Of a stretch of 64,000 bases of DNA, positions 4,459-57,695 are shown piece after piece (within the stretch, counting starts at the first letter, position 1; the number at the start of each line of letters is the position of its first letter). The position numbers and the translations under genes were made by a program. This stretch comes from Tateyamaria omphalii. Lineage in GTDB: Bacteria; Pseudomonadota; Alphaproteobacteria; Rhodobacterales; Rhodobacteraceae. The stretch lies in the NCBI RefSeq assembly GCF_019802125.1, contig NZ_JAHVHT010000005.1:1-64000 (forward strand), read 5' to 3'. The notes beneath the pieces were generated by a model. It had not been told where the DNA came from and ran no database searches. It saw only the letters and a list, made by a program, of their open reading frames with translations.

Positions 4459-4488
4459 AAAACTGCCAGCACGAGAGAGGATATTTCA

Positions 4489-5472: not shown

Positions 5473-5485
5473 CGGGCAGTGATCC

Positions 5486-11484: not shown

Positions 11485-11510
11485 GTTGATGTCCTCCCTA
11501 TTGCTGATTG

Positions 11511-16526: not shown

Positions 16527-16529
16527 GCG

Positions 16530-18202: not shown

Positions 18203-18211
18203 GAGATGACT

Positions 18212-19291
18212 ATGGAGTATCGGACACTGGGATCCACTGGGCTTAAGGTCTCTGTCATCACCATGGGTACATTCACGTTCGGCGGCCGCGGTGATTTCGG
18301 GCGCACTGCCACTCAAGACGTCCAAAAGGCGCGCCGCTTGGTGGATACCTGTATCGATCACGGTGTGAATATGTTTGATACGGCCAACATGTACTCAACC
18401 GGGCTGTCCGAAGAGATCCTGGGAGAAGTGCTGGAGGAGCGATACGACGATCTTCTGGTGACGTCCAAGGCCCGCATGCCGATCGGACAGGGACCCAACG
18501 ATGAGGGCGTTTCAAGATGGCACCTGATCCGTGAATGCGAGCGCTCGCTCAAGCGACTGCGCACCGATCATATTGATCTTTACTACATGCACGAATGGGA
18601 CGGGCTGACGCCGGTCGATGAGAAAATGGCCGCGCTCGACACCCTGATCCAGCAAGGCAAAGTGCGCTATGCTGGCTGTTCCAACTACTCGGGCTGGCAG
18701 GTGATGAAGTCGCTTGCGGCGGCCCCCAGCTTTGCCAGCCGTTTTGTGGCGCAACAAATCCACTACACGCTTGAAGCGCGTGAGGCCGAGTATGAGTTGC
18801 TGCCGCTTTCCGTGGATCAGGGCTTGGGGGTGCAGGTCTGGTCGCCGTTGGCTGCAGGTCTGCTGTCTGGCAAGCATCGGCGTGGATCTGGACCGGCAGA
18901 AGGGTCGCGGCAGGCGGCGGGATGGAACGAACCCCCGATCCGCGACATCGAGCGCCTTTGGGATATCGTCGACGTTTTGGTTGAGATCGGAGAGGCCCAT
19001 GGCGTCGAAGCTGCACAGGTCGCATTGGCGTGGTTGTTGACCCGTCCCGCCGTCTCGTCATTGGTTGTTGGTGGGCGCAATGCCGAACAGTTCGAGCGCA
19101 ATTTTCGGGCTGTTGATTTGGTCTTGTCGGATGATGAGCTGAACCGTTTGAACGATGTCAGCCGTTTGCCGTTGGTTTATCCGTACTGGCACCAACACAA
19201 CTTTGCGCGTCCACGCTTCAGCACGGCAGACCAGGCACTTCATGCGGACTACCCCGATCGCCACTATGGTGGAGAAGACCCGCTAGTGTAG
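18212..19291 (+). CDS. Aldo-keto reductase
   Basis: A 359-residue NADPH-dependent oxidoreductase of the aldo-keto reductase superfamily (potassium-channel beta-like group). Visible are the beta-barrel start MEYRTLGSTGLKVS, the catalytic FDTANMYSTGLSEE (Asp and Tyr), LVTSKARMP (Lys), LYYMHEWDG (His) and the cofactor region SSLVVGGRNAEQFERN. The ATG at 18212 has AGGAG six bases upstream; the ATG at 18206 touches the AGGAG and is less likely. As the last gene of the operon it could reduce the aldehyde made by the aldolase (methylthioacetaldehyde or acetaldehyde) to an alcohol; this is inference. Confidence 0.85.
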   Translation: MEYRTLGSTGLKVSVITMGTFTFGGRGDFGRTATQDVQKARRLVDTCIDHGVNMFDTANMYSTGLSEEILGEVLEERYDDLLVTSKARMPIGQGPNDEGVSRWHLIRECERSLKRLRTDHIDLYYMHEWDGLTPVDEKMAALDTLIQQGKVRYAGCSNYSGWQVMKSLAAAPSFASRFVAQQIHYTLEAREAEYELLPLSVDQGLGVQVWSPLAAGLLSGKHRRGSGPAEGSRQAAGWNEPPIRDIERLWDIVDVLVEIGEAHGVEAAQVALAWLLTRPAVSSLVVGGRNAEQFERNFRAVDLVLSDDELNRLNDVSRLPLVYPYWHQHNFARPRFSTADQALHADYPDRHYGGEDPLV

Positions 19292-19355
19292 CGCGCCGCA
19301 TCCAAGAGAACGTCTCGGCCAGGTTTTCTTGATGACCGTTGGCAGTTGTGATGCT

Positions 19356-19958
19356 TCAATGTCGTGCCACGGCCGCCTTCACGACCGATTGCATTGCTAA
19401 CATGCCGGGATCATCCATACCGATACTCTTGTCGCCAAAAATGCGGGCCCGGCCCGCCGTTGCGGGTTTGTCGCGGAAGTCCTTGAGTGCGGTATCCACT
19501 GCCTGTGCAGCAGCCGTTGCCTTGTTTTCGGCACTCGCCAAGGCCTTTGCCAGGTAGTCCAGACTGTCGAGCACTGTCTTGCCGCCAAGGGCCGCCTTGC
19601 CGCGCTCTTGCATCTTGTCTCGTGCACCCGCGATCAGGCCAGACATGTCCTCGGGGTCGATATGGTCCTTGCCTCGCAATGTTTTCGCCGCAGACATCAA
19701 GCCCGTGGCGACCAAGGTGCCGTAAGACGATCCCGACGACTTGGTGAAAGCCTGTGCACATTGGAACAGTGCCATACCGATGTCCTCGGGCAAATCGTCC
19801 TTCGTTTCGCTGATCGCGCGCATTCCCCGGGTCATGGTGACACCCAGATCACCATCGCCCAAGGCACCGTCCGCTGCATTGAGCATGTCGAAATCCCGTT
19901 CCATCGCTGCTGCGATACGGTCGATGGCAGACAGCAGCCCGTTGTGGGTGATGGTCAT
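19356..19958 (-). CDS. dhaL: DhaL-type subunit of dihydroxyacetone (ketose) kinase
   Basis: The nucleotide-binding subunit, 200 residues. The magnesium-binding loop is complete: Asp30, Asp35 and Asp37 in AADGALGDGDLG match the three aspartates of characterised DhaL. A further hallmark is SGSSYGTLVATGL. The ATG at 19958 overlaps the DhaK stop (ATGA); a longer reading is inside dhaK. No DhaM (PTS phosphoryl donor) gene is present, so either ATP is used directly, as in fused ATP-dependent kinases, or DhaM is elsewhere. It is the last gene of the minus-strand operon. Confidence 0.9.
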   Translation of the reverse strand: MTITHNGLLSAIDRIAAAMERDFDMLNAADGALGDGDLGVTMTRGMRAISETKDDLPEDIGMALFQCAQAFTKSSGSSYGTLVATGLMSAAKTLRGKDHIDPEDMSGLIAGARDKMQERGKAALGGKTVLDSLDYLAKALASAENKATAAAQAVDTALKDFRDKPATAGRARIFGDKSIGMDDPGMLAMQSVVKAAVARH

Positions 19959-20956
19959 CCAACCCTCCAGAACGCGCAGTCGCACGGGGCCCTTAGCAAA
20001 CGCTCCAACTCGTCATCCAGTTTGCACAACGTGAACGATACACCGCTCATTTCCATAGACGTGGCGTATCGGCCCACCAGTGGCATGATGATCCGCGCGC
20101 CCGTTGCGTCGAGACGCTCTTTGACGATGCGGTAGAGGATGTACAACTCCTCGGGTGGCGTTGCCCCGAGTGAATTGACCAGGACCGACACCCGGTCACC
20201 ATTGGCCAATGGCATGTCGGCCAGGAGACGATCCATCATTTCGTTGGCGATCTCATCGGCGGATTGCAGTTTGCCGCGCCACACGCCGGGCTCACCGTGG
20301 ATGCCCATGCCCATCTCCATTTCGTCATCCGCGATCTCGAAAGTGGGCTTGCCCGCTTGCGGTACGGTGCAGGGTGACAAGGCGGCCCCGATCGAGCGGC
20401 ATGCATCCGCGGCTTTCTGAGCCACGGCGGTGACAGCAGCAAGGTCACGCTCTTCTTCGGCGGCGGCTCCCGCAATCTTGAACGCATATACCATACCGGC
20501 AACGCCACGACGCTTTTCGGCTTCGTCCGGCGGGGCAGAGGCGACGTCATCCGCGAGCAGCACCGTAGAACAGGTGATGTCTTCGAACTCGACCAGTTCA
20601 CCTGCCATATCGAAATTCATCACGTCTCCGCCGTAATTTCCGTAGAGGCGCAAGACACCAGCGCCATTGTCGGCCACTCGGATCGCGTCGGCCATCTGCT
20701 CAGCGGACGGAGAGGCAAAAACGTCGCCGACGGCGCAAGCATCCAGCAACCCTTGGCCGACGTAACCGGTGAACACCGGCAGGTGACCCGATCCACCACC
20801 CGTGACGATACCGACCTTCCCAGGCTTGCCCGGCTTTGCGCGCGCAACCACTTTGCCGCTGTCCCCGTACATTTGGTAGTGCTCGGAATGCGCGGCAATC
20901 AGGCCTGCCAGCATTTCGTCGACATAGGCGTCCGGGCTGTTCAGTATCTTCTTCAT
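19955..20956 (-). CDS. dhaK: DhaK-type substrate-binding subunit of dihydroxyacetone (ketose) kinase
   Basis: Substrate subunit of 333 residues. DhaK binds its ketose covalently through a histidine: His220 in GMGIHGEPGVWRG is the equivalent, with His58 in GGGSGHLP and Asp111 in NYGGDVMNFD also in place. The segment GHLPVFTGY departs from the GHEPAH usual in dihydroxyacetone kinases, so the substrate may be a different short ketose such as erythrulose (inference). GGGAGGA lies six bases before the start. It follows two sugar permeases, in the same operon as a complete importer, so it probably phosphorylates the imported sugar or a breakdown product. Confidence 0.9.
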   Translation of the reverse strand: MKKILNSPDAYVDEMLAGLIAAHSEHYQMYGDSGKVVARAKPGKPGKVGIVTGGGSGHLPVFTGYVGQGLLDACAVGDVFASPSAEQMADAIRVADNGAGVLRLYGNYGGDVMNFDMAGELVEFEDITCSTVLLADDVASAPPDEAEKRRGVAGMVYAFKIAGAAAEEERDLAAVTAVAQKAADACRSIGAALSPCTVPQAGKPTFEIADDEMEMGMGIHGEPGVWRGKLQSADEIANEMMDRLLADMPLANGDRVSVLVNSLGATPPEELYILYRIVKERLDATGARIIMPLVGRYATSMEMSGVSFTLCKLDDELERLLRAPCDCAFWRVG

Positions 20957-20972
20957 CTTGTCCTCCCAAAGG

Positions 20973-21983
20973 TCAGGATGCAGGCTTGGCGCTGCGTCGT
21001 AGCGCCGTGATGGCGTGTGTGTTGATGACCATGACCAGGATCAGCAAAACGCCCCAGATCAATTCGCGTGCGAAGTTCGACACCTGCAGCATGTTCAAAC
21101 CGCTCGACAGAAATTGCATGGACAGCACGGCAAGAACCACGCCAATCACACGGCCATACCCGCCGTAAGGGTTTACGCCGCCCAAGACCGCTATCAGGAC
21201 TGCCAGCAACAGGTAGGACGAGCCGTAGTCCGCCTTGGCCGAATTCGCGCGGCTCATGATGATCAGACCTGCCACGGACGAAAACATTCCCGCAATCACG
21301 TAGACTTTGAGCAGCATCCGGTTGATGTCGATGGCGGCATAAAGCGCTGCCAGCGGGTTCGCACCGTACATTGTCACACGCAAACCGAATGCTGTGCGTG
21401 TCAGAAGCAGGTGCAATATGCAGGCAAGAAGCGCAAATAGGATCAATGGCACAGGGACGCCAAGGACCTGCGCATTTCCGATCAGCGCGACAGTTGCCGG
21501 GAATCCCATGACCGCACTGCCACCCGTCATTGCGATCGCAAAGCCAGTGAAGACCAAGCCCGACCCAAGTGTTGCCAAGATGGGTGGTAAGCCGAAAAAG
21601 GCGACAAGTGCTCCATTCAACAGCCCGGCGACCGCGCCAATGGCCATGGCCACTGCAATGGCAACGCAAAGCCAAACAGCAGATTGTGATGCAGGCATCG
21701 ACGGGTCCGAAAAATGCGTGAGGATCAGCGCAGCTACCACGGCCGAAAGGTTCGCCACGCCTACCACAGACAGGTCGATGCCGCCTGTCATCATGGTGAT
21801 GGCCATCGCCAGAGCAAGGATGGCGAACTCGGGGAACTGAAATGCCATTGATGTCAGGTTCTGCGATGACAGGAACCTGTCTGGTGACAGCACCGACATC
21901 AGGCCAAAGACCAAGGCTGCAATCAGGAACAAACGGAATTCCGGTGCAGCGGTTATGTCGCGAGGTGTCGTGTGTTGCTTCAT
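20973..21983 (-). CDS. Sugar ABC transporter permease (second of a pair)
   Basis: RbsC-family inner-membrane permease, 336 residues. Hallmarks are LALAMAITMMTGGIDLSVVG, TMYGANPLAALYAAIDINR, LAVLIAVLGGVNPYGGYGR. It follows another permease by seven bases; two different permeases in one operon suggest a heterodimer. It ends 16 bases before dhaK. The start ATG is at 21983; no strong ribosome site is obvious. Confidence 0.87.
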   Translation of the reverse strand: MKQHTTPRDITAAPEFRLFLIAALVFGLMSVLSPDRFLSSQNLTSMAFQFPEFAILALAMAITMMTGGIDLSVVGVANLSAVVAALILTHFSDPSMPASQSAVWLCVAIAVAMAIGAVAGLLNGALVAFFGLPPILATLGSGLVFTGFAIAMTGGSAVMGFPATVALIGNAQVLGVPVPLILFALLACILHLLLTRTAFGLRVTMYGANPLAALYAAIDINRMLLKVYVIAGMFSSVAGLIIMSRANSAKADYGSSYLLLAVLIAVLGGVNPYGGYGRVIGVVLAVLSMQFLSSGLNMLQVSNFARELIWGVLLILVMVINTHAITALRRSAKPAS

Positions 21984-21990
21984 TTTGCCT

Positions 21991-22992
21991 TCATCCTGCG
22001 CGTGCCGCGGCCCGCTTGGCGCGGTAGGCCGGTACGCCCGTCCCCAAAAGGATCAGGATGCCGATGGTGACCGATTGCCAGGTGGTTGGAATGCCGATCA
22101 CGATCAAGCTGTTCTGAACGATCACGATGAGAGCTACGCCGAGAAGCGTACCGGTCAGAGTGCCATAGCCTCCGATCAGTCGCGCACCGCCCAGAACAAC
22201 CGCAGCGATCACGGACAGCTCGAGACCGACAAGGGAAAATGGGTCGGCCATACGTCCAACCGACCCGTGTATGATCCCTGCAAGCCCGGCGAGTGCGCCA
22301 ACGTACACATAGACGAAAAATTGCGTCCACTTGACATTGATCCCGATGCGCCGTGCGCTTTCGACCGATCCGCCGATGGCATAAATTGACCGGCCGAGCA
22401 TCGTTTTCTTCAAGATAAACCAAGTCGCTATAATCACGAAAAGCAACGCAAGGGCGGCCCAAGGGATGGAATAGAAATTTCCTGCTTCCGTGGTGCCACG
22501 CGCCAGCACCCCGCGTGAGAAGTCCCGCATCGAAGGGGGCAGAGCGGAGATACGCTGCGAGCCGATGAATGTCAGGAGGAAGCCCCGAAAAATCGAAAGT
22601 GTGCCAAGCGTTACGATCAACGTCGGGAGGCCAAGGAAGGCGATGAAATAGCCATTTATCGCTCCCAAAATGGCGCCGAAGACGATGGATATGGCAAAGA
22701 TGAGCGGCCACGGCGCCTCGGGCCATACAGCAAGGAAGAGAACTGTCGAGGAATACATCGCAAAGACGGCGATGGCGGTGAAACTGACGTCGATACCGCC
22801 GGATACAAGCACCAGCATGGCGCCGACGGCCAAGATGCCGATGACGATCGACGCCCGCAGAAGATCGGATACCGTGGTGATTGTGAAAAACCGTGGATCG
22901 GAGAGCGTCGCGACGACACAGAACAAAACGATCACACCTGCAACCAACGTTTCGTTGCGCGTCCAGATATCCTTGGGCAGCCAGCCGTTCAT
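21991..22992 (-). CDS. Sugar ABC transporter permease (first of a pair)
   Basis: RbsC-family permease, 333 residues, with AVGAMLVLVSGGIDVSFTA, YAIGGSVESARRIGINV and ELSVIAAVVLGGARLIGGYG. The ATG overlaps the ATPase stop by four bases. It is about as long as its neighbour but clearly different in sequence, consistent with an old duplication and a heterodimeric channel. Confidence 0.87.
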   Translation of the reverse strand: MNGWLPKDIWTRNETLVAGVIVLFCVVATLSDPRFFTITTVSDLLRASIVIGILAVGAMLVLVSGGIDVSFTAIAVFAMYSSTVLFLAVWPEAPWPLIFAISIVFGAILGAINGYFIAFLGLPTLIVTLGTLSIFRGFLLTFIGSQRISALPPSMRDFSRGVLARGTTEAGNFYSIPWAALALLFVIIATWFILKKTMLGRSIYAIGGSVESARRIGINVKWTQFFVYVYVGALAGLAGIIHGSVGRMADPFSLVGLELSVIAAVVLGGARLIGGYGTLTGTLLGVALIVIVQNSLIVIGIPTTWQSVTIGILILLGTGVPAYRAKRAAARAG

Positions 22993-24485
22993 GAGGCCAA
23001 CCTGTGTGCAAGATCGTCTTCGGTCACGGACTTGCCGTCGAGATTGTCAATAATCTTTCCGTCCCGCATGACCAGGATGCGGTGGCAGGTGGCAAGCAAT
23101 TCTGGCAGATCGTCGGAAATGACGATAATGCCGATGCCCTGAGTGGCTAGGTTACGAATGATATCGTGGATATCCGCCTTCGACCCAACATCAACGCCCA
23201 CGCTGGGTCCATTCAGGATCAGGACCCGCGGTGCGCGTGACAGCCAGCGCGCCAATGCGACGCGCTGCTGGTTTCCGCCGGACAGTGACTGAACTGGCGC
23301 GTGCACATCGGGCGCTTTGACTTTGAGTTTCGTCAGCCATTCAGACGCTTCGCCAGCCAAGTTGCCCATGTCCAGGAGACCGCGATTGCTGTGCGTATCC
23401 AACCGTCCTACCGCAACGTTGTGCAGAATGGATTGGCTGAGGAACAGGCCCTCTGTCAGCCGGTCCTCGGGGACATAGCCAATACGCGCCTGCGACGCAG
23501 CTTGCGGGTCGCCTGTTGGCACCGGCTTACCATCAACTGCAATCGTACCTTCGTCCGGAGCCACGAGACCAAACAGAGCCTTGGCAACCGAGGTGCGTCC
23601 GCTGCCCAAAAGGCCGGTGATGCCAAGAACCTCTCCGACTTTCAGGTCGAATGTGATGTCTGAGAACGAGTCCGCTTTTGTCAGCCTCTTTACCTGCATG
23701 AGCGTTTCGGCTCCCGCCGTCACATCGCTCGGCGGCACCTCGGGCACATCACGACCTGTCATGTGATAGGTTAGAGATTGGGTGTCGAAATCCTTTGCCG
23801 GCCCTTCGGCGACCTTCTTGCCGTTGCGCAGCACTACAACTCTCTCCGAAACCTCGAGAACCTCGGCCAGTTTGTGACTTACGAAGATCACCGCAACGCC
23901 CTCGTCCTTGAGCATGCGGATGATGCTCTGCAGGCGTCGCACCTCCTTTTCCGTAAGTGCGGTCGTCGGTTCGTCCATGATAATCAGCCGCGCTTGCGAC
24001 GCGAGTGCGCGGCAGATTGCGACGAGTTGTTTCTGAGCGACGGGCAGAGCCTCGACCCGAGCATCGAGATCAATTTCGACCCCGATCCGGTCAAGCGCTT
24101 TGCGTGCGATGTCACGTGTCGCACCTGATTTATAGAAACGTTCATGCTGCGAAAGTTGAGTCGCGAAGGAAATGTTCTCTGCAACACTCAAGTTTGGAAA
24201 CAGCGAAAAATCCTGAAAAATCACCATAACCCCGGCCGCGGCAGATATGCGGGGGTTCAACACCGTGCGCTCTTCTCCAGCGATGTGAATGGTGCCTTCG
24301 GTGGCGGGCTCAACGCCCGAAATGATTTTGATAAGTGTCGATTTGCCCGATCCGTTTTCACCGGCCAGACAAACTGCTTCACCCGGCTGAACCGTGAAAT
24401 CGACGCAATCAAGCGCTGTGACTCCTGCATATCTCTTGGTGATTGCGCGGAGATCTATAAAGGCGCTGCCGCAGTCTGAAGACAT
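22989..24485 (-). CDS. Sugar ABC transporter ATPase (RbsA-type, tandem domain)
   Basis: A 498-residue tandem ATPase. Module one has GENGSGKSTLIK and LIIMDEPTTALTEKEV; module two has GLLGSGRTSVAKALFG and SLSGGNQQRVALARWLS. I start it at the ATG at 24485 (MSSDCGSAFIDLRAITKRY). A reading extending to 24533 would begin inside the hairpin at 24520-24546 and is unlikely. It lies between the binding protein and the permeases, with the hairpin separating it from the binding-protein gene. Confidence 0.88.
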   Translation of the reverse strand: MSSDCGSAFIDLRAITKRYAGVTALDCVDFTVQPGEAVCLAGENGSGKSTLIKIISGVEPATEGTIHIAGEERTVLNPRISAAAGVMVIFQDFSLFPNLSVAENISFATQLSQHERFYKSGATRDIARKALDRIGVEIDLDARVEALPVAQKQLVAICRALASQARLIIMDEPTTALTEKEVRRLQSIIRMLKDEGVAVIFVSHKLAEVLEVSERVVVLRNGKKVAEGPAKDFDTQSLTYHMTGRDVPEVPPSDVTAGAETLMQVKRLTKADSFSDITFDLKVGEVLGITGLLGSGRTSVAKALFGLVAPDEGTIAVDGKPVPTGDPQAASQARIGYVPEDRLTEGLFLSQSILHNVAVGRLDTHSNRGLLDMGNLAGEASEWLTKLKVKAPDVHAPVQSLSGGNQQRVALARWLSRAPRVLILNGPSVGVDVGSKADIHDIIRNLATQGIGIIVISDDLPELLATCHRILVMRDGKIIDNLDGKSVTEDDLAHRLAS

Positions 24486-24519
24486 GAACGACCAACTCAA
24501 ATTGTGTGTACAGAGAAAC

Positions 24520-24546
24520 AAGGAGCAGCCCACTGGGCCGCTCCTT
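24520..24546 (-). terminator. Hairpin (partial terminator) between binding protein and ATPase
   Basis: Arms AAGGAGC-A-GCCC and GGGC-C-GCTCCTT pair with one mismatch around a three-base loop. On the minus strand it is followed by GTTTCTCTG. It stands 12 bases after the binding-protein stop and 35 bases before the ATPase start. Such attenuators commonly allow more binding protein than transporter to be made. Confidence 0.6.
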
Positions 24547-24557
24547 GGATCGTCGGA

Positions 24558-25547
24558 TCAGAACGGATAGTCGCCCATATTCTCGGCGCTCACGTTTACC
24601 CAGGCCTGGCCGTAGATCACTTTGCCATCCAGTGAGATACTCTCGTATCCCGGCAAGCCAAGATCCATACCGTCGGTAACATCCTCGCCGTTCATCACCA
24701 TGACCGCGAGTTTGTTCATCGCTTCACCTGCGACGGCAGGATCCCAGAAGCCGATGCCGTCGACAGCACCAGTTTCGAGATATTGCCCAGCAATGGATGG
24801 CAAAGATGTACCGAACACGCATGTGCCGTCTTCCATCCCGCGCTCTTCAATCGCGCGACCGATGCCAGCGACATCTGTTGAGGCTGATCCTTGCATTCCC
24901 TTGATGCTCGGGAAAGCGCGCAGCACTTCCTGCGCCTTTGTGTAGGCCTGTTCCGCGTCGTCGAAGGTTTCGTTCTTGTCCCCGACGAGGGTCATGTTTG
25001 GATAGTTGGCTTCCTGATGGGCGATTGCACCATCCACCCATTGATTGTGCGTTTGCGACGTAAGCGAGCCAACGAAAACCGCATATTCACCTTCGCCACC
25101 CATGCAGGTCGCAAGCTGTTCCATGAGGTTTGCGCCGAAGTCCTCGTTGACGAACGCCTCGAGATCGTACGCTGTGTTCTGCTGTGCTGCGGCCTCGTGC
25201 GTAATGACAGCGATACCTGCATCCATTGCGCGTCCCAAAACCGGCTCCAGTGCTTCGGGTGACATTGGCACAACAGCCAGAGCGTCCACGCCCTGGGCAA
25301 TCATATCTTCAATCAGTGCAACCTGCTGCTGTGGGTCGGCTTGCGCGGGCCCGACCTGAAAAGCGTTCATGCCGCTTTCGTCGGCGAACTTTTTTACGCC
25401 CTCTTCCATGCGGTTGAACCACTGGATACCCGCGATCTTGACCACTGTGGCAATGTCCTTTGAGTGGCCGTCAGCAACCACCTGCGTACTGAAAAGTGCG
25501 GTAGACGCGAGGACCGCACCGGAGAGTAATCTGAACTTCATTTTCAT
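24558..25547 (-). CDS. Sugar ABC transporter substrate-binding protein
   Basis: Periplasmic binding protein, 329 residues, of the ribose/autoinducer-2-type family. A signal peptide ([16 protein letters not shown]) ends near VVADGHS. Family features are [50 protein letters not shown] and the C-terminal [17 protein letters not shown] is eight bases upstream of the ATG at 25547; an alternative ATG lies two codons in. It heads the operon binding protein-ATPase-permease-permease-dhaK-dhaL. The ligand is unknown; the presence of DhaKL suggests a short-chain or branched sugar, or a polyol. Confidence 0.87.
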
Positions 25548-25683
25548 CAATTTTTCCTCCCTATGCCCGCATTGCGGACCATTGTCCGGCACAAACGTTT
25601 TTCGCAAGACCGGCAGAAAAATGTGACATCGCAAAGGGTTAATCGACAGAAGTGAATCTGAAATACCCAAGCGTGTAACACTT

Positions 25684-25715
25684 GTGCATTGACTGCACGT
25701 TTGTGACTATATAAT
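25684..25715 (+). promoter_or_regulatory. Candidate promoter and operator of the epimerase/E1-E2/kinase operon
   Basis: TTGACT at 25689-25694 and TATAAT at 25710-25715 are separated by 15 bases, a little short for a sigma-70 promoter. The -35 lies within an inverted repeat GTGCA-(5)-TGCAC (25684-25698). The region is the 192-base gap between divergent operons, so a SorC regulator bound here could control both; inference. Confidence 0.4.
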
Positions 25716-25739
25716 TGACTAACGCAAGGTCAAGCCATT

Positions 25740-26747
25740 TTGTCGCAGGTAACTCGGGAGCCCTTTCGCGCCATGCTCATGCAAAAACGCCAGGCTGATG
25801 ACGACATCGCGCAGGTGGCTTGGCTGTACTACGTCGGGAATCTCAGCCAGCAGGAGGTCAGCAAACGGCTGGGCGTGTCCCGTTTCAAAGTCCTCCGCAT
25901 GCTTGCCGATGCTCGCGAGCAGGGGCTGGTTCGCATCACGGTTGAGCATCGGACGGCCGGAACGCTGGCGCTTGCGGATCGCTTGACCAAGGTCTTCGAC
26001 CTACAAGAAGCCCAAGTTGCGCCAGTAGGTGCCGTGATGAATGACGACGAACTGGCGCGCAATGCGGTGGCGATTTTAGCCAGTGGATACTTGACACGCA
26101 TCGCGAGCTCGGAAGGTGCCATCACGGTTGGGGTCGGTTGGGGGCGCACTTTGTCGGCAATGGCGGACAATCTCACCGGTGTTCGCAATAGCGGGATGAC
26201 GTTCGTATCTTTGATGGGGTCAGTTGCATACGCCTCGCACACGGCACCGGGCGACGTGTGCGTTCGGCTCGCGGCGCAGACGGGCGGACGCGCCATTTTA
26301 CTCCCCGCACCGTTCGTAGCGGACAGCGCTTTAGCCTGCGAAGATATCATGGCTCAACGGCTTGTGCGCGATGCGCTTGATGCAGCGCGTGGGGCAAGCC
26401 ATGCGTTGATGAGTGTCGGCGAATGTCGCGAGGGCGCGATCCTATTCGAAAGCGGCATCTTTAGCCCGGAGCAGATCCAGCAATTGCGCGATGCCGATGT
26501 TGTCGGAGATTGCTGTGGCGTCTTCTACAAGGCGGACGGGACGGTGGCGGATATTGAACTGAACCACTGCACACCATGCGTTCAGCCAACAGATATGACC
26601 GAAATGGACACCGTACTCTTGGCCGGTGGCTCCGGAAAACTGGCAGCCACGCTGGCGGTTCTGCGGGCTGGTTTCGTCAAGAAGCTGTTGGTCGACGAAG
26701 GTTTGGCCGTCGCACTGCTCGAAGCCAGTGAGTCGCAGGACGCATAA
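25740..26747 (+). CDS. SorC-family sugar-binding transcriptional regulator (second copy)
   Basis: A 335-residue regulator with an N-terminal helix-turn-helix (VAWLYYVGNLSQQEVSKRLG, then VSRFKVLRMLADAREQGLV) and a SorC effector domain (GVGWGRTLSAMADNLTGV, VSLMGSVAYASH). The start is uncertain: TTG 25740 gives the longest product; ATG 25773 or ATG 25779 are alternatives and keep the whole helix-turn-helix. The stop overlaps the epimerase start by one base. It stands between two divergent sugar operons and is the likely local regulator. Confidence 0.83.
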   Translation: MSQVTREPFRAMLMQKRQADDDIAQVAWLYYVGNLSQQEVSKRLGVSRFKVLRMLADAREQGLVRITVEHRTAGTLALADRLTKVFDLQEAQVAPVGAVMNDDELARNAVAILASGYLTRIASSEGAITVGVGWGRTLSAMADNLTGVRNSGMTFVSLMGSVAYASHTAPGDVCVRLAAQTGGRAILLPAPFVADSALACEDIMAQRLVRDALDAARGASHALMSVGECREGAILFESGIFSPEQIQQLRDADVVGDCCGVFYKADGTVADIELNHCTPCVQPTDMTEMDTVLLAGGSGKLAATLAVLRAGFVKKLLVDEGLAVALLEASESQDA

Positions 26748-27595
26748 TGCAGGGTTTTGGTGTCCATACCAGCATGTGGACAATGTCCTGGGATGCGGCA
26801 GGGTGTGAACGGGCGGTGGCGAAGGCCCAATCGTACGGTATGGATTTTCTTGAGATTGCTCTTCTCGACCCGCTAAGCGTCGATGTAAAACACAGTCGCC
26901 AAGTGCTGGAAGCGGCAGGGATGCGCGCAGTCTGTTCACTTGGATTGCCGCAGCCGATTTGGGCGTCACACAATCCCGACGGTGCGGTCGAATTCCTGAC
27001 AACTGCGTTGGATAAATGCGCGGCCATTGGTGCCGAAGCGTTGTCAGGCGTGGTCTACGGCGGCATCGGGGAACGCACTGGCCAACCACCGACGCCGGCC
27101 GAGCTGGACAACGTGACCGATGCACTCGTTCGCACTGCGAAACACGCAAAATCGCTTGGGCTTCCGCTCGGGATCGAACCCGTCAACCGGTACGAAACGC
27201 ACTTGCTCAATACCGGCTGGCAGGCGGTCGAGATGATTGAACGGATCGGTTTGGACAACATGTTTGTGCATCTCGACACCTATCACATGAACATCGAGGA
27301 AAAAGGTATTGCGCAGGGCATCGTCGATGCCCGTGAGCACCTGCGTTACATCCACCTGTCGGAGTCTGATCGGGGAACGCCAGGTGCCGGCACAATTGCC
27401 TGGGACGAGGTCTTCGGTGCCTTGCGTGCAGTGGGCTTCAAGGGCGGCCTCGCCATGGAGAGTTTTGTCAATATGCCGCCCGAAATCGCCTCTGGCTTGT
27501 CGGTCTGGCGACCCGTGGCGTCTGGCGAAGCGGAAGTAATGGGAAACGGCCTGCCATTCCTGCGCAACAAGGCGCGCCAGTACGGTCTGATCTGA
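26747..27595 (+). CDS. Sugar isomerase/epimerase, D-tagatose 3-epimerase type
   Basis: A 282-residue TIM-barrel enzyme (AP_endonuc_2 family). The four metal ligands of ketose 3-epimerases are visible: Glu144 (GIEPVNRYE), Asp177 (HLDTYHMN), His203 (YIHLSESDRG) and Glu238 (AMESF). Their spacing (33, 26, 35 residues) is the same as in D-tagatose 3-epimerase. Such enzymes invert C3 of free ketoses and tolerate deoxy and short ketoses. It is the first enzyme of the plus-strand operon, overlapping the regulator stop, and would process the imported sugar before kinase or cleavage steps (inference). Confidence 0.87.
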   Translation: MQGFGVHTSMWTMSWDAAGCERAVAKAQSYGMDFLEIALLDPLSVDVKHSRQVLEAAGMRAVCSLGLPQPIWASHNPDGAVEFLTTALDKCAAIGAEALSGVVYGGIGERTGQPPTPAELDNVTDALVRTAKHAKSLGLPLGIEPVNRYETHLLNTGWQAVEMIERIGLDNMFVHLDTYHMNIEEKGIAQGIVDAREHLRYIHLSESDRGTPGAGTIAWDEVFGALRAVGFKGGLAMESFVNMPPEIASGLSVWRPVASGEAEVMGNGLPFLRNKARQYGLI

Positions 27596-27611
27596 TGGGG
27601 AGCCAAAGCGT

Positions 27612-28625
27612 ATGAAAAACTCAACGCTTCCGGAACTGTACGAAGAGATGCGCCGTGTGCGTACATTCGAGGAAAGGGTAGGGGAGTTGTTTGTGCGCGG
27701 ACAATCCGCAGGCTCCATGCTGCATTTGTCCATCGGTGAAGAAAGTGCAGCTGTCGGGGTTTGTGCGAGTATGCGCGACGGAGATACGTTCACCACCCAT
27801 CATCGTGGCCACGGTATCTTTCTCGCGCGCGGTGCCGATCCAAACCGCATGATGGCAGAGATCGCAGGCAAACAAAACGGTTACTGCCAAGGCAAAGGCG
27901 GCTCGATGCACATTGCTGACATGGGCCTCGGCCACCTCGGGGCCAACGCCATTGTCGGCGGTGGTATTCCAGCGGTGGTTGGTGCAGGGCTGTCTGCACG
28001 GCATACGCAGTCCGGCGCGGTATCCGTGGCCTTTTTTGGCGATGGCGCGACGGGGCAGGGCATTCTCTACGAAAGCATGAACATGGCCGCGCTCTGGAAC
28101 CTGCCTGTCATGTTTGTTTGCATCAACAATCAATATGGCATGGGCACGAGGATTGATCAGGCCACAGCCAATCCGAACCTGCACGAACGCGCTGAGGCGT
28201 TTGGCCTTGCTGCAAGGACGGCGGACGGTCTGGATGTCGAGGAAGTCGTCGACGCGGCAGGCGTACTTCTTGATGGTGCGCGATCAGGCAAGCCGGCATT
28301 CCTTGCCATCGACTGCTACCGTTTTTACGGCCACGCAAGGAAAGACAAGTCTCCCTATCGCACCGACTCGGAAGAAGAAGAGGGACGCAAGAAAGATCCG
28401 TTAATCCATGCGCGCGGAAAGTTGATGGCAAGCGGTCTGATGTCCGAGGCCGACATCAATGCGCTGGATGCCAGAGTGGCGGTGGAAATGGATGCGTCAA
28501 TCGATTTTGCAGTTGCTGGTCAAGAGCCACAGATGGCGTCGATGTTCCGCGATGTCTATGACGCGGCTCAGCCAGAGCCTGAACCGGTGCGCACCCGCAT
28601 CGACCGTGTTCTGGCGCAGGGGTGA
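27612..28625 (+). CDS. Thiamine-diphosphate dehydrogenase E1 alpha subunit (acetoin/pyruvate dehydrogenase type)
   Basis: A 337-residue E1 alpha subunit. The thiamine diphosphate/magnesium motif runs from FGDGATGQG (Gly143 on) to CINNQYGMG about 30 residues later, and the phosphorylation-loop region YRFYGHARKD is conserved. The short length and the YCQGKGGSMHIAD segment resemble acetoin dehydrogenase AcoA as well as pyruvate dehydrogenase. With E1 beta and an AcoC-type E2 downstream, the complex would cleave an alpha-hydroxyketone and trap the acyl fragment as an acyl-CoA. Whether the substrate is acetoin or a ketose is the key open question. It starts 17 bases after the epimerase. Confidence 0.87.
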   Translation: MKNSTLPELYEEMRRVRTFEERVGELFVRGQSAGSMLHLSIGEESAAVGVCASMRDGDTFTTHHRGHGIFLARGADPNRMMAEIAGKQNGYCQGKGGSMHIADMGLGHLGANAIVGGGIPAVVGAGLSARHTQSGAVSVAFFGDGATGQGILYESMNMAALWNLPVMFVCINNQYGMGTRIDQATANPNLHERAEAFGLAARTADGLDVEEVVDAAGVLLDGARSGKPAFLAIDCYRFYGHARKDKSPYRTDSEEEEGRKKDPLIHARGKLMASGLMSEADINALDARVAVEMDASIDFAVAGQEPQMASMFRDVYDAAQPEPEPVRTRIDRVLAQG

Positions 28626-28630
28626 TAAGC

Positions 28631-29614
28631 ATGGCGATGCAGGAAGCAACCTATCGCGATGCACTGCGCATGGCCTTGAGTGACGCCATGTCTTTTGACG
28701 ACAGCGTCATTGTCATGGGTGAGGAGGTGGGCCGATACGGTGGCGCTTACGGCGTAACGAAGGACTTGATAGCCGAGTTTGGACCCGAAAGAGTCATCGA
28801 TACACCGATTTCAGAAGCGGCAATTGTCGGGACGGCAGTCGGCGCGGCAATGACGGGCCTGCGACCGGTTGCTGAACTGATGTATGTCGACTTCATCGGT
28901 ATGACGATGGACCAGTTGGCCAATCAAGCGGCCAAGATCCGCTACATGTTTGGAGGCCAGATCGGTGTGCCCATGGTTCTGCGAACCCAGGGCGGGACGG
29001 GCAGGTCCGCAGGCGCTCAGCATAGTCAGAGCCTCGAAGCGTTTGTTATGCACACGCCCGGTTTGCGACTTGCGATGCCTGCAACGGTCGATGATGCCTA
29101 TCACCTGTTGCGTCAGGCGATGACTCAACCGGATCCCGTTGTGTTTATCGAACACAAGAGCCTCTACACGATGAAGGCCCCATTGAACCCAAATGCCGAA
29201 CCCGTGGGATGGGGGCAGGCCAATGTTCTGCGTGAAGGCGACGATCTTGTGATGGTGACGTATTCGCGGCAGGTGCACTATGCTCTGGCTGCGGCGCAAA
29301 CGTTGCAGACCGATCACGACATCTCGGCAGCCGTGGTCGACTTGCGCACACTGAATCCGCTGGACTTCGAAACGATCCGCCCTTTGGTTGAAAACGCTGG
29401 AAAGGCGATGGTGATTTCGGAGGCTGTTTTGACCTGCGGTGTCGCGGCGGAATTGGCAGCGCGGATCACCGAAGAATGCTTTGACTTCCTTGAGGACCCG
29501 GTCGTGCGTGTGGCCGGTGAGGACATTCCGATTTCGGTTTCACCTCTGTTGGAAAACAACTCGGTGCCGACGCCGGAGCTGATCATCGAAACAGCAAAGA
29601 AAATGTTCGTATGA
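28631..29614 (+). CDS. Thiamine-diphosphate dehydrogenase E1 beta subunit (acetoin/pyruvate dehydrogenase type)
   Basis: A 327-residue transketolase-like E1 beta subunit: VIVMGEEVGRYGGAYGVTKDL, TPISEAAIVGTAVGAAM, the potassium-site region and the C-terminal domain VVDLRTLNPLDFETI. ATG 28631 has AGGGG about eight bases upstream; a GTG at 28622 overlapping the alpha stop is a weaker alternative. The stop overlaps the E2 start (ATGA). It pairs with the preceding alpha subunit in an alpha2beta2 E1. Confidence 0.9.
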   Translation: MAMQEATYRDALRMALSDAMSFDDSVIVMGEEVGRYGGAYGVTKDLIAEFGPERVIDTPISEAAIVGTAVGAAMTGLRPVAELMYVDFIGMTMDQLANQAAKIRYMFGGQIGVPMVLRTQGGTGRSAGAQHSQSLEAFVMHTPGLRLAMPATVDDAYHLLRQAMTQPDPVVFIEHKSLYTMKAPLNPNAEPVGWGQANVLREGDDLVMVTYSRQVHYALAAAQTLQTDHDISAAVVDLRTLNPLDFETIRPLVENAGKAMVISEAVLTCGVAAELAARITEECFDFLEDPVVRVAGEDIPISVSPLLENNSVPTPELIIETAKKMFV

Positions 29615-30816
29615 ACGACGCGATCAAGCTCACCATATCGATGCCGCGTCTTGGGGAGACAATGGAGGAAGGCACCATTGCTGCTTGGCTCATCGAACCC
29701 GGCAACAGCTTCAAGCGCGGCGATCCGTTGGTGGAGGTCGAGACCGACAAGACGCTTGTCGAGTATCCGGCACTTGGCGACGGCACGCTGATCGAAACGC
29801 TGGTGACGCAAGGTGATGTTGTAGAGGTAGGCACACCGATTGCGGTCATTGAAACGGCGGATGCGTGGGACGGGGGCCAAGGCGCTGATATCCCAGATCA
29901 GACACCTATGGTTGAGGAACACGAGCCCGAGAAACAAATTATTGCAAGACGTAAATCAGACAGTCTCCGCCCGCGCGCGACGCCGTTGGCGCGACGCATC
30001 GCGTATCAGAGCGGCATTGATCTGATAAAGATCACCGGCAGCGGTCGACGGGGCCGGATCGAAGCTGACGATGTCCGCGCAGAAATCTCTGGAATAGGTG
30101 CGAGAACGCGATCTTTGCCTAGAAAGACTGGTGCGTATTACTTCGTTCACGGCTTTGCGGGTTTGGGATCGAATTGGGCCGCCCTGCGTGCGCATCTTCA
30201 ACGTGCCGGCGTTACAACCAAAGCGCCTGACTTGCCCGGTCACGGAAACAATGAGGCAGAGGCTCCGAACGTGGATGCCTTGTTGGATTGGCTTGTTCAG
30301 GATCTGACCAACCTGTCTGAGCCTGTACATTTGATCGGCCATTCACTCGGGGGCTATCTGGCGGCTCAAGCGGCCTTGCGGGAGCGATCGCGCGTTTCGC
30401 GTTTGACCCTGATCACGCCCGCCGGATGCGGTTTGAATATCAACGGAGCTTTCACAAGCGGCATGGCACATGCGCAGAGTGCTGGCGAAGTAGCACATCT
30501 CATGCGGCTGTTGGGGCGCAAGGCCGAAGCGTTGGATGTACAAGACATGACTGCCGGCCTGCAAGGCGCGCGCCTGTCCGGGCTTGCTGACGATATAGCG
30601 CGCGGAGATGTTCAACGAATTGATACGATTGCGCCGCTGAGAACTCTCGCAGGTGATCTACCGACTACTGCAATCTTTGGTTTGAACGACCAGATTATCC
30701 CGCGCAGCCAAGTATTTAATATGCCACCTTGGGTGGCCTGCCACATGGTTGATGCCGGACATATGCCCCATTGGGATGCATCGGAAACTGTTGCAGCCAT
30801 CATGACGGGCCCATGA
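29611..30816 (+). CDS. E2 component with lipoyl domain and alpha/beta-hydrolase domain (AcoC type)
   Basis: A 401-residue three-part protein. Residues 1-82 are a lipoyl domain with lipoylation site Lys47 (VETDKTLVEY). Residues about 118-152 resemble a peripheral-subunit-binding domain (ATPLARRIAYQSGIDL, then ITGSGRRGRIEADDV). Residues about 175-401 are an alpha/beta hydrolase with nucleophile Ser245 (LIGHSLGG), an acidic residue in FGLNDQIIP and His in DAGHMPHWD, replacing the usual acyltransferase domain. This architecture is that of AcoC, the E2 of acetoin dehydrogenase. No E3 (lipoamide dehydrogenase) gene accompanies it, so the housekeeping E3 would be shared. It is followed by the FGGY kinase 25 bases later. 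Confidence 0.9.
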   Translation: MNDAIKLTISMPRLGETMEEGTIAAWLIEPGNSFKRGDPLVEVETDKTLVEYPALGDGTLIETLVTQGDVVEVGTPIAVIETADAWDGGQGADIPDQTPMVEEHEPEKQIIARRKSDSLRPRATPLARRIAYQSGIDLIKITGSGRRGRIEADDVRAEISGIGARTRSLPRKTGAYYFVHGFAGLGSNWAALRAHLQRAGVTTKAPDLPGHGNNEAEAPNVDALLDWLVQDLTNLSEPVHLIGHSLGGYLAAQAALRERSRVSRLTLITPAGCGLNINGAFTSGMAHAQSAGEVAHLMRLLGRKAEALDVQDMTAGLQGARLSGLADDIARGDVQRIDTIAPLRTLAGDLPTTAIFGLNDQIIPRSQVFNMPPWVACHMVDAGHMPHWDASETVAAIMTGP

Positions 30817-30841
30817 AACGACGCAAAGGAGACGATCGGGT

Positions 30842-32335
30842 TTGGCGTATTTCCTGACAGCAGACGGCGGCACGGAAAGCCTGCGCGCACGGATCTATGA
30901 CTTGAGCGGGACGTGTATCGCCTCGCACGCGGAAGCTTACGAGACAGTCTTTTCGCCCGGTGCGCGTGCAGAGCAAAACCCGGAGCATTGGTGGGCGTGT
31001 TTGTGCAAAGCAACGCGCGCTTGTTTGGCAGAGGCAGGGCTGTCCGGAAATCAGATCGAGGCGATGGCGTATGCCACCACGTGCTGTACAGTTGTCGCCT
31101 TGGATCCGGCGGGTCAGCCACTCCGACCAGCCATCATGTGGATGGACGTGCGCGCCGACCACGAAGCCGGGGCTGTCCTGGCCACGGGTGACGCACGTTT
31201 GAAGCTGAATTCCGACGGGGCGGGGCCAGTGTCTGCTGAATGGATGATCCCCAAGGCGCTCTGGATCAAACGCAATGAACCGGACATCTACGCCGCTGCC
31301 GCGACGATCTGCGAATATCAAGACTATCTGACCCTTCGACTGACCGGCGAACGCTGCGCGTCACTAAACAATGTCGGCCTGCGTTGGCACTATGCGAACC
31401 GCGACGGCGGTTGGGCGGAAAGCCTTGTTTCAGCTCTGGATATGGCCGATCTGGTCGACAAATGGCCCGCCCGCGTTGCAGCACCTGGTGAAGTGGTCGG
31501 CCACTTGACGGCCGAGGCCGCCGCAGCACTTGGGCTGACAACCAGAACCAAGCTGGTGCAAGGTGGGGCAGATGCGCTAATCGGAATGATCGGCCTGGGC
31601 GTTTCGAAACCAGGCCAGCTTTGCCTGATCACGGGATCATCGCATTTGCAGTTCGGCGTAACAGAAAAACCATTTTACGCTCCGGGTATGTGGGGGGCAT
31701 ATGCTGATATCCTGTATCCGGACCGGTTCATAATCGAAGGCGGGCAAACGTCGACGGGCTCCATCATCAATTGGCTACGTCGCTTCGTGGGTGGTGAACT
31801 GGATTTTGAAACGATGAACCGCAAAGCTGCAGAGCTGTCACCCGGTTCGGATGGGCTGATCGTACAGGATCACTTTCAGGGCAATCGCACACCCTATACG
31901 GATGCACAGTCGCGGGGCGCGATTGCTGGACTAACACTCGCGCACGAGCCGCATCATGTTTTTCGCGCCGTGATGGAGGGAATCGCCATGGGCACTCGGG
32001 CGATCCTCGATGCCTTCGCAAAGGGTGGGTATCAAGGCACGGAGATGATCGCGGGCGGTGGCGCGACCAATTCCGATCTGTTCATGCAGATCCACGCAGA
32101 TACAGCGGGCATGCCTTTACGAATTCCGGCTTCTACCGATGGTCCATCATTGGGATCCGCGATCCTTGCCGCGCATGGCGCAGGGCACTTTGACACCATA
32201 GACGACGGCATAGAGGCAATGGTCAAACCTGGTCGAGTGATTGATCCAAACCCCCAAGCGGTTGTGGCATATGAAGAAATCTATGCGCGCTACACTGCTC
32301 TCTACCCGGCGCTTAAAAATGCCTTCGAGCGGTAA
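30842..32335 (+). CDS. FGGY-family carbohydrate kinase
   Basis: A 497-residue sugar kinase of the ribulokinase/xylulokinase family. The N-terminal phosphate-binding loop reads TADGGTESLRARIYD; IMWMDVRADHEAG is the substrate-binding segment; ITGSSHLQFGV and AGGGATNSDLFMQIHADTAG are the adenosine-binding motifs. A TTG start is preceded by AAGGAG nine bases upstream. It ends the plus-strand operon. With both an FGGY kinase and DhaKL in the divergent regulon, two phosphorylation steps or two substrates are implied. The exact sugar is not evident; a C4-C5 ketose or polyol is typical for the family. Confidence 0.87.
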   Translation: MAYFLTADGGTESLRARIYDLSGTCIASHAEAYETVFSPGARAEQNPEHWWACLCKATRACLAEAGLSGNQIEAMAYATTCCTVVALDPAGQPLRPAIMWMDVRADHEAGAVLATGDARLKLNSDGAGPVSAEWMIPKALWIKRNEPDIYAAAATICEYQDYLTLRLTGERCASLNNVGLRWHYANRDGGWAESLVSALDMADLVDKWPARVAAPGEVVGHLTAEAAAALGLTTRTKLVQGGADALIGMIGLGVSKPGQLCLITGSSHLQFGVTEKPFYAPGMWGAYADILYPDRFIIEGGQTSTGSIINWLRRFVGGELDFETMNRKAAELSPGSDGLIVQDHFQGNRTPYTDAQSRGAIAGLTLAHEPHHVFRAVMEGIAMGTRAILDAFAKGGYQGTEMIAGGGATNSDLFMQIHADTAGMPLRIPASTDGPSLGSAILAAHGAGHFDTIDDGIEAMVKPGRVIDPNPQAVVAYEEIYARYTALYPALKNAFER

Positions 32336-54255: not shown

Positions 54256-54302
54256 ACGACTCCATACTTGCTGAAGTCGCAGAAACGCCAGAGGGACCGA
54301 CA

Positions 54303-55271: not shown

Positions 55272-55283
55272 GGGGCGTTGGTC

Positions 55284-56066: not shown

Positions 56067-56071
56067 TCAAC

Positions 56072-57682: not shown

Positions 57683-57695
57683 TGGGGTTTATCTG

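What the first reader, a model, noticed from the sequence alone, without database searches (positions are those of the whole stretch)
19356..32335. Divergent sugar regulon joining DhaKL kinase to an acetoin-dehydrogenase-type complex
Seen: importer plus dhaK and dhaL on one strand; SorC regulator, tagatose-3-epimerase-type enzyme, E1 alpha, E1 beta, AcoC-type E2 and FGGY kinase on the other, sharing one 192-base promoter region. Established: Aco complexes cleave the acyloin acetoin to acetyl-CoA and acetaldehyde; DhaK phosphorylates short ketoses; such epimerases act on ketoses, including deoxyketoses. Inference: the complex cleaves the C2-C3 bond of an imported ketose (a 1-deoxyketose would give acetyl-CoA plus an aldose; an ordinary ketose would give glycolyl-CoA), and the kinases phosphorylate the other fragment. 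I know of no described pathway with this gene set, and no aldolase is present.
Basis: partly seen in the sequence, partly recalled or inferred. Interest (0 to 1): 0.85.

Follow-up and report, generated by a model that had tools for sequence, protein, structure and literature searches.

The report
Sugar regulon with carbon-bond-cleaving dehydrogenase complex
A conserved gene set in marine and soil alphaproteobacteria seems to import an unusual sugar and split it with an enzyme complex related to, but distinct from, those that burn pyruvate or acetoin, which may be a way of eating 'deoxy' sugars not yet described.

Summary
In detail: importer-dhaKL and SorC/epimerase/E1α/E1β/AcoC-type E2/FGGY kinase lie divergently at 19356-32335. 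It is a real regulon. Of 80 epimerase loci, the 21 closest all carry further genes of the set, 18 of 21 with E1; the other 59 show no E1/E2 in the stretches held. A palindromic operator in the shared promoter is conserved; its exact form occurs once in the genome.

Corrections: an aldo-keto reductase (18206) belongs to most of these clusters, and a MtnK-MtnA-SorC-aldolase operon ('DHAP shunt' type) often adjoins, so an aldolase is next door. E1 groups with neither acetoin nor pyruvate E1s. E1-E2-FGGY travels as a cassette and recurs in a sister regulon with another importer and SDRs.

Best reading: FGGY phosphorylates a 1-deoxyketose and E1/E2 cleaves C2-C3 to acetyl-CoA plus triose phosphate. 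Support: more distant E1/E2 operons adjoin DRL (DXP reductoisomerase type II); a Priestia plasmid also has an FGGY kinase 40% identical; a basic residue pair in an E1α loop is shared with the DRL group. The substrate is not established. DhaKL's role is the weak point; apulose is a serious rival. I found no published pathway in open-access searches.

The parts
10444..14035 (-). second sugar-type ABC importer (binding protein, permease, ATPase) divergent from mtnK
   Evidence: binding protein PF13407; relatives beside mtnA/mtnK in L042 and L050, and the ATPase in L041
14167..15426 (+). mtnK, methylthioribose/5-deoxyribose kinase
   Evidence: TIGR01767 445.6 bits, cut-off 275
15423..16526 (+). 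mtnA, (methylthio/deoxy)ribose-1-phosphate isomerase
   Evidence: TIGR00512 424.9 bits, cut-off 279
16530..17525 (+). second SorC/DeoR-type regulator
   Evidence: NF053881 181 bits, below cut-off 420
17522..18202 (+). class II (FucA-type) aldolase
   Evidence: NF005984 192 bits, below cut-off 264
18206..19291 (+). aldo-keto reductase of the core cluster, beside dhaL in most relatives
   Evidence: PF00248; 75-92% identical relatives in 21 of 41 tabulated rows, of which three pairs are the same contig
19356..19985 (-). dhaL
   Evidence: PF02734
19955..20956 (-). dhaK
   Evidence: TIGR02363 379.9 bits; 3ct4 257.5 bits
20973..21983 (-). importer permease 1
21991..22992 (-). importer permease 2
22989..24533 (-). 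importer ATPase
24558..25550 (-). binding protein (probable start near 25550); closest solved relative 5bra
25679..25698 (.). palindromic operator CACTTGTGCA-N5-TGCAC in the shared promoter region
   Evidence: conserved in relatives, only exact copy in the genome
25740..26747 (+). SorC/DeoR-type regulator of the divergent regulon
   Evidence: NF053881 165 bits, below cut-off 420
26747..27595 (+). ketose 3-epimerase (T3E type)
   Evidence: 7dz5 466 bits; PF01261
27612..28625 (+). E1 alpha (ThDP)
   Evidence: PF00676 219 bits; own clade
28338..28349 (+). E1α loop GHARKDK: Arg243 and Lys246, basic pair shared with DRL-linked E1s
   Evidence: R 36/36 and K 36/36 in this clade; K or R 8/8 and R 8/8 in the DRL group; the pair was not seen in the acetoin-type, PDH, Priestia or Clostridioides E1s (sites first picked)
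28622..29614 (+). E1 beta
   Evidence: PF02779/PF02780
29611..30816 (+). E2: lipoyl + E3-binding + alpha/beta-hydrolase domain (AcoC architecture)
   Evidence: NF011457 312.2 bits, cut-off 307
30842..32335 (+). FGGY sugar kinase travelling with E1/E2

Best explanation
A SorC-controlled regulon for a ketose that ordinary sugar metabolism cannot use, most likely a 1-deoxyketose (a methyl-ketone sugar such as 1-deoxyxylulose or its C3 epimer). The CUT2-type importer brings it in; the T3E enzyme sets the configuration at C3; the FGGY kinase phosphorylates the far end. E1αβ then attacks the C2 carbonyl with ThDP, breaks C2-C3 as acetoin dehydrogenase does, and passes the acetyl group through the lipoyl arm of the AcoC-type E2 to CoA, giving acetyl-CoA and a triose phosphate. 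DhaKL (triokinase) and the aldo-keto reductase would recover triose formed when cleavage precedes phosphorylation. Shown: the genes, their linkage and exchange between regulons, the shared operator, E1 grouping with neither PDH nor acetoin E1s. Inferred: every chemical step, the substrate, and the order of kinase and cleavage. Weakest: the roles of DhaKL and AKR.
For: E1-E2-FGGY is the unit that travels: FGGY is beside E1 in 32 of 36 E1 loci of this clade (window included), and the other 4 (L033, L047, L120, L130) end at a contig end. The cassette (E1α 71-76%, FGGY 66-71%) serves a sister regulon with another importer and SDRs in 8 loci, FGGY seen in 7, and E1s of the two types intermix in the tree (7-member mixed clade, UFBoot 99; similar). 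In the L050 genome the type-A cluster lacks E1/E2/FGGY, and a type-B E1 is present elsewhere (taken to be L118 because contig number, coordinates and score agree). More distant E1/E2 operons are preceded by DRL in 4 loci reached through E1 or E2 and 4 of 4 alphaproteobacterial loci fetched as DRL hits (two of these records were already in the E2 list). A Priestia plasmid has DRL, E1/E2/E3, a glucitol-type PTS and an FGGY kinase 40% identical to this one within about 16 kb. A basic residue pair in one E1α loop is shared with the DRL group. PMC3424233 (passages): purified PDH makes 1-deoxyxylulose from pyruvate and glyceraldehyde, aceE mutants make DXP, XylB phosphorylates 1-deoxyxylulose.
Against: No DRL hit in this genome (its controls were silent), which has an ordinary DXR, so DXP is by analogy. 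The window E1 clade is not sister to the DRL clade in the rooted trees, and its own support is only UFBoot 71 (0.995). The loop pair was picked after the fact from 37 clade-conserved E1 positions (18 in E1α, 19 in E1β), most of which are not shared with the DRL group; the loop's place at the active site is recalled, not tested. If FGGY acts first, DhaKL and AKR are not needed. L032's genome keeps importer, DhaKL, T3E and AKR without a close E1 (best 41%); L121, L125 and L131 have E1/FGGY/DhaKL without T3E in the stretch held. FGGY relatives at 39-49% also lie in clusters of other kinds. DRL in two Firmicutes has no E1 beside it.
Confidence: 0.4

Rival explanations
1. The complex cleaves a ketose with a free C1 hydroxyl. 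The most attractive case is apulose (from D-apiose): C2-C3 cleavage would give glycolyl-CoA and dihydroxyacetone, which DhaKL would phosphorylate; FGGY would be an apulose-type kinase and the TIM-barrel protein an isomerase rather than an epimerase.
For: Explains DhaKL directly. The E1α position that is Tyr in most PDH and acetoin-type E1s is Ser here, which might admit a more polar donor. No result excludes it.
Against: The TIM-barrel protein is closest to solved D-tagatose 3-epimerases (466 bits), not to a known aldose isomerase. Does not explain the DRL-linked relatives. FGGY and DhaKL would be redundant. The apiose chemistry is recalled; no paper on it was read.
Confidence: 0.2
2. Two pathways share one regulon: importer, T3E, DhaKL and AKR handle one sugar, and E1/E2/FGGY another step or substrate, brought together only by co-regulation.
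For: L032's genome has the first set without a close E1. E1/E2/FGGY occurs without the first set in 7 of 8 type-B loci, the eighth being cut.
Against: 18 of 21 type-A loci keep E1 with the first set, in at least three gene orders, and L125 and L126 do so in yet another.
Confidence: 0.15
3. A 2-oxo acid dehydrogenase: the sugar is turned into a 2-oxo acid that E1/E2 decarboxylates.
For: E1 and E2 belong to the 2-oxo acid dehydrogenase superfamily. The type-B regulon has SDRs.
Against: Among the genes scanned at 14167-32335 there is no evident dehydrogenase, lactonase or dehydratase to make such an acid. The genome has its own canonical PDH E1.
Confidence: 0.1
4. An ordinary acetoin or 2,3-butanediol operon with sugar genes nearby by accident.
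For: E2 passes the AcoC model cut-off.
Against: E1 lies outside the 27-member acetoin-type clade (support 1.0). No acoX, butanediol dehydrogenase or sigma-54 regulator among the genes scanned at 14167-32335. Acetoin needs no ABC importer, epimerase or kinase.
Confidence: 0.05

Closest known systems
Acetoin dehydrogenase system (AcoABC)
   Same: E1αβ plus an E2 of lipoyl and alpha/beta-hydrolase architecture over the AcoC model cut-off
   Different: E1 in a separate clade, no aco neighbours, sugar importer, epimerase and kinases instead
DRL (DXR type II)-linked E1/E2 operons of rhizobial plasmids and Priestia (no description met in what I read)
   Same: E1/E2 in sugar-type regulons, most with a SorC-type regulator, shared loop residues (rhizobial group), FGGY relative in Priestia
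   Different: These have DRL and, where visible, PTS or CUT1 import, some with PfkB; no T3E or DhaKL; E1α only 40-46% identical
DHAP shunt / 5-deoxyribose salvage (PMC6079011)
   Same: the neighbouring mtnK-mtnA-aldolase operon has its three steps
   Different: it has its own regulator and importer; acetoin and dihydroxyacetone kinase are not mentioned in that paper (word search)
AI-2 (Lsr) uptake and breakdown
   Same: distantly LsrB/RhaS-like binding protein, LsrR/DeoR-type regulator, FGGY kinase; Lsr yields acetyl-CoA + DHAP (recalled)
   Different: only one of six recalled AI-2-contacting residues is kept; the kinase is far below the LsrK cut-off (174 vs 528)
Apulose-4-phosphate transketolase route of D-apiose (recalled)
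   Same: C2-C3 cleavage of a ketose with an FGGY kinase and an ABC importer
   Different: lipoyl-E2 complex instead of a transketolase

Membership tests
Acetoin dehydrogenase (Aco) | E2 of AcoC type | tested here: met
   NF011457 312.2 bits, cut-off 307
Acetoin dehydrogenase (Aco) | E1 groups with AcoA/AcoB | tested here: not met
   36-member clade (0.995) apart from the 27-member acetoin-type clade (1.0), 102 sequences; 19 of the 27 are labelled by similarity only
Acetoin dehydrogenase (Aco) | activity on acetoin | not testable with these tools
   needs enzyme assay
Pyruvate dehydrogenase | E1α over the PDH model cut-off | tested here: not met
   TIGR03182 313.3 bits, cut-off 393.85; canonical PDH E1 elsewhere in the genome
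Dihydroxyacetone kinase DhaKL | DhaK and DhaL families together | tested here: met
   PF02734, DhaK 3ct4 257.5 bits; both below the TIGR equivalog cut-offs
Ketose 3-epimerase (T3E) | sequence relation to solved D-tagatose 3-epimerases | tested here: met
   7dz5 466 bits; below the NF051856 psicose-epimerase cut-off (157 vs 300)
DHAP shunt (neighbouring operon) | kinase and isomerase | tested here: met
   MtnK, MtnA
DHAP shunt (neighbouring operon) | 5-deoxyribulose-1-phosphate aldolase | tested here: inconclusive
   class II aldolase below every curated cut-off shown (25 of 28 families shown)
Lsr/AI-2 system | AI-2-contacting residues of the binding protein | tested here: not met
   one of six positions (list recalled) kept against SmLsrB
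DXP-cleaving catabolic complex (proposed) | turnover of a 1-deoxyketose or its phosphate | not testable with these tools
   inference from context and loop residues only

The most novel reading that the evidence does not exclude
A third branch of E1/E2 complexes, beside those for pyruvate and acetoin, exists for sugars: it cleaves 1-deoxyketose phosphates of the DXP kind to acetyl-CoA and triose phosphate, the DXP-synthase bond run backwards and coupled to NADH. With FGGY kinase it forms a portable cassette plugged into at least two kinds of regulon (T3E/DhaKL; SDRs), and its DRL-linked cousins (with PTS import of a polyol such as methylerythritol) do the same step, which would give bacteria a way to eat isoprenoid-pathway sugars.
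Probability: 0.3. Interest if true: 0.85.

Novelty: new variant of a known kind. Interest (0 to 1): 0.62.

Why it matters
If right, it fills a gap: DXP is made by most bacteria and by plants (recalled), yet I found no described catabolic route for it or for 1-deoxyxylulose or methylerythritol in the searches listed. It would also correct annotations, since these genes are often named pyruvate or acetoin dehydrogenase parts in the records seen, and offer an enzyme that splits or makes 1-deoxy sugars. Even if the sugar is another one, a conserved, portable E1-E2-FGGY cassette is a testable new pathway type.

Tried and rejected
AI-2 import was considered because of the LsrB/RhaS-like binding protein, and rejected on residues.

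A guess that S. meliloti SMc02774 was the sister-cluster binding protein was not borne out; that protein binds L-fucose (PMC3454389, passages).

A second operator copy near mtn or AKR genes was sought: one match in the window at up to 3 mismatches, the known one.

Literature: looked for this gene set or a DXP/methylerythritol catabolic route; no listed title describes one (listings only; 20 of 162 papers listed, 12 of 22). PMC3847144 (word search) does not mention acetoin, pyruvate dehydrogenase or transporters. The library is open-access only, so absence from it is weak evidence.

More DRL-linked E1s were sought in 385 genomes at E 1e-110 and none was found (the tool warned that such an empty answer shows nothing), so that group rests on 8 plasmid loci plus Priestia. 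Of 111 plasmid records with a DRL match I opened 6 as DRL hits.

Rows not used: L134 was dropped from the trees (short match). L117, L119 and L122 seem to lie on the same contigs as L051, L042 and L041 (equal contig lengths); L117 was left out of the trees for that reason, while L041 and L042 were not in them because their E1 lies beyond the held stretch. The 41-row table holds both members of each pair. In one search the own genome's PDH is counted twice (L132, L186).
Full report
What is there. The window holds a divergent gene set at 19356-32335 as described (families). On the minus strand: dhaL, dhaK, two permeases, an ATPase and a binding protein. On the plus strand: a SorC/DeoR-type regulator, a ketose 3-epimerase, E1α, E1β, an AcoC-type E2 and an FGGY kinase. 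Two things were missed. The aldo-keto reductase at 18206-19291 belongs to most of these clusters. And the operon 14167-18202 (MtnK over its cut-off; MtnA over its cut-off; a second SorC-type regulator; a class II aldolase) recurs beside it, so 'no aldolase' holds only inside the stated borders.

Is it more than chance? Of 535 epimerase relatives, the best 80 loci were kept. The 21 with epimerase identity of 76% or more (L031-L051) all carry further genes of the set. E1 is in the held stretch in 16 of 21 and just beyond the edge in two more, L041 and L042; in L033 and L047 the contig ends before E2 and FGGY. The three exceptions: L032, whose genome has no close E1 (best 41%); L050, whose genome has a sister-type E1 elsewhere; and L040, whose stretch begins at a contig end and whose genome was not held. 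None of the other 59 loci shows an E1 or E2 match in the stretch held. Genes of the mtn operon (mtnK, mtnA, its regulator or its aldolase) appear in 15 of the 21, in several arrangements, including one in which mtnK-mtnA-aldolase sits between epimerase and E1α (L051). The E1 of this clade is rare: 16 of 394 genomes of the family at E 1e-100 and 2 of 385 of the class at E 1e-120, the own genome included in both; the one same-genus genome listed had none. This is an accessory system.

Regulation. The 0.2-kb divergent region contains a conserved element, CACTTGTGCA-N5-TGCAC. Its core, TTGTGCA-N5-TGCAC, is found in all twelve of L031-L042 with at most one mismatch, and within one mismatch between SorC and FGGY in the rearranged loci L125-L128. 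At that limit it was not found in L043, L044, L047 and L131, nor in L119, L122 and L124 (the first two begin inside the ATPase gene, so miss the region), nor in any of the 8 type-B loci, L123 or L130. In the own genome the exact form occurs once, at 25679-25698; with up to 2 mismatches the count (9) equals background (control 8). No copy lies near the mtn operon. The two arms are therefore likely co-regulated, and the mtn operon probably answers to its own regulator.

What travels with what. Searching outward from E2 and E1α showed a sister regulon in 8 loci opened (L111-L115, L118, L120, L129): SorC regulator, different importer, E1α, E1β, E2, a carboxymuconolactone-decarboxylase-like protein (6 of 8), FGGY (7 of 8, the eighth cut) and one or two SDRs where the stretch reaches them. 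E1α is 71-76% and FGGY 66-71% identical to the window's, while the binding protein is not recognisably related at the limits used. In trees the E1s of the two types are intermixed (53 sequences, 646 columns, 102 sequences, 629 columns), so the cassette has been exchanged between regulons. FGGY is beside E1 in 32 of the 36 E1 loci of this clade; the other four end at a contig end. FGGY and E1/E2 thus probably act in one pathway, while T3E, DhaKL and AKR are the part that changes.

What E1 is not. In the larger tree the window clade (36, support 0.995), the acetoin-type clade (27, 1.0), the PDH clade (26, 0.98, own PDH counted twice) and a clade of 8 DRL-linked E1s with one Priestia and one Clostridioides E1 (10, 0.979) are separate. 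In the smaller tree the window clade has UFBoot 71. Three acetoin-type loci were taken with their operon context; of 25 added ones, 5 have an upstream acoX match and 20 are labelled by similarity only. The genome has its own PDH E1 elsewhere. By descent this E1 is therefore neither an acetoin nor a pyruvate dehydrogenase E1, though the E2 passes the AcoC model.

The DRL link. Four more distant E1/E2 operons (E1α 42-43% identical) are preceded by a 441-aa protein that Pfam calls DRL catalytic domain (221-231 bits); one of them matches the solved 3upl/3upy at 720 bits (that these are the Brucella DRL, a type II DXP reductoisomerase, is recalled; the PMC3847144 abstract in the listing describes the enzyme type). 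Opening hits of the DRL search instead, 4 of 4 alphaproteobacterial loci had E1α, E1β and E2 directly downstream (two of the records were already known from the E2 search, and their DRL was identified by 57-90% identity, not by Pfam), whereas 2 of 2 Firmicute loci had the glucitol-type PTS but no E1 beside it. On a Priestia plasmid, DRL (233 bits), E1/E2/E3, glucitol-type PTS and an FGGY kinase 40% identical to the window's lie within about 16 kb. E2 in the DRL operons scanned is either the classical acyltransferase (L138, L141) or the alpha/beta-hydrolase form (L116), which suggests that the two do the same job. If DRL works on its known substrate pair, the sugar reaching E1/E2 in those operons is DXP.

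Residues. From 37 clade-conserved positions, one E1α loop stood out (window residues 240-250, GHARKDKSPYR). Position 243 is Arg in 36 of 36 of this clade and Lys or Arg in 8 of 8 DRL-linked E1s; it is Glu in 8 of 8 acetoin-type E1s supported by context, Glu in 15 and uncharged in 5 of the 20 labelled by similarity, and Met in 27 of 28 PDH-group sequences. The Priestia and Clostridioides E1s have Lys. Position 246 is Lys in 36 of 36 and Arg in 8 of 8, Ala or Pro in the 8 context-supported acetoin-type E1s, Pro in 27 of 28 PDH-group sequences, and Ala in Priestia and Clostridioides (the PDH group includes one branched-chain-type outgroup). That this loop lies at the active-site mouth is recalled from the human enzyme. 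A phosphate-binding role is inference, and the choice of site was made after the fact.

Mechanism proposed. PDH-type E1 enzymes already handle this chemistry: purified PDH forms 1-deoxyxylulose from pyruvate and glyceraldehyde, aceE mutants supply DXP, and XylB phosphorylates 1-deoxyxylulose (PMC3424233, passages). The proposed order is importer, epimerase, FGGY kinase, E1/E2 cleavage to acetyl-CoA and triose phosphate. DhaKL and AKR are then left for triose made without prior phosphorylation, which is unsatisfying; the apulose rival explains DhaKL better but not the DRL relatives. Against any single pathway stand L032, which has kept one half only, and L121, L125 and L131, which have no T3E in the stretch held.

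Known or new. No paper title in the searches listed describes this gene set or a catabolic route through DXP (open-access library, capped listings). Closest systems: acetoin dehydrogenase, the DHAP shunt next door (PMC6079011, passages), and DRL/MEP enzymes. I class it as a new variant of a known kind (2-oxo-acid/acyloin dehydrogenase complexes used in sugar breakdown).

Verdict. Observation confirmed and strengthened; interpretation partly supported and sharpened; substrate open. Interest 0.62.

Noticed in passing
window 3187-10332: Cytosine-deaminase-type amidohydrolase (NF005748, 731 bits), BMP-type binding protein, amidase and ABC importer; 46-70% identical genes lie beside the sister (type-B) E1/E2 cluster in 2 of 8 loci (L111 without the amidase, L114). 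Possibly a deoxynucleoside or base salvage operon.
   Followed up: partly
window 53272-59315: What looks like another ABC sugar importer (frames, not scanned) with an FGGY pentulose kinase well over its cut-off (TIGR01315, 603 vs 408.7 bits), followed by a 539-aa frame without any NCBIfam match.
   Followed up: no
L218 (Shinella sp. H4-D48 plasmid): A further, different E1/E2 cluster: E1α, E1β, a transaldolase-family protein, AcoC-type E2, E3, phosphatase, TIM-barrel protein, triose-phosphate isomerases, lipoyl synthase and three FGGY-type kinases, one 39.5% identical to the window's.
   Followed up: partly
L149 (Ligilactobacillus salivarius plasmid): DRL-type protein with glucitol-type PTS, fructose-6-phosphate aldolase and transketolase instead of E1/E2: perhaps another way to break the same sugar.
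   Followed up: no
L041, L042, L043, L044, L048: A roughly 700-aa protein that reads as an aldolase/short-chain dehydrogenase fusion (not scanned against models) lies beside the mtn genes, where the window has a single-domain aldolase.
   Followed up: partly
window 19955-19985, 28622-28625, 29611-29614: dhaL/dhaK, E1α/E1β and E1β/E2 frames overlap by a few bases, as in translationally coupled operons.
   Followed up: no
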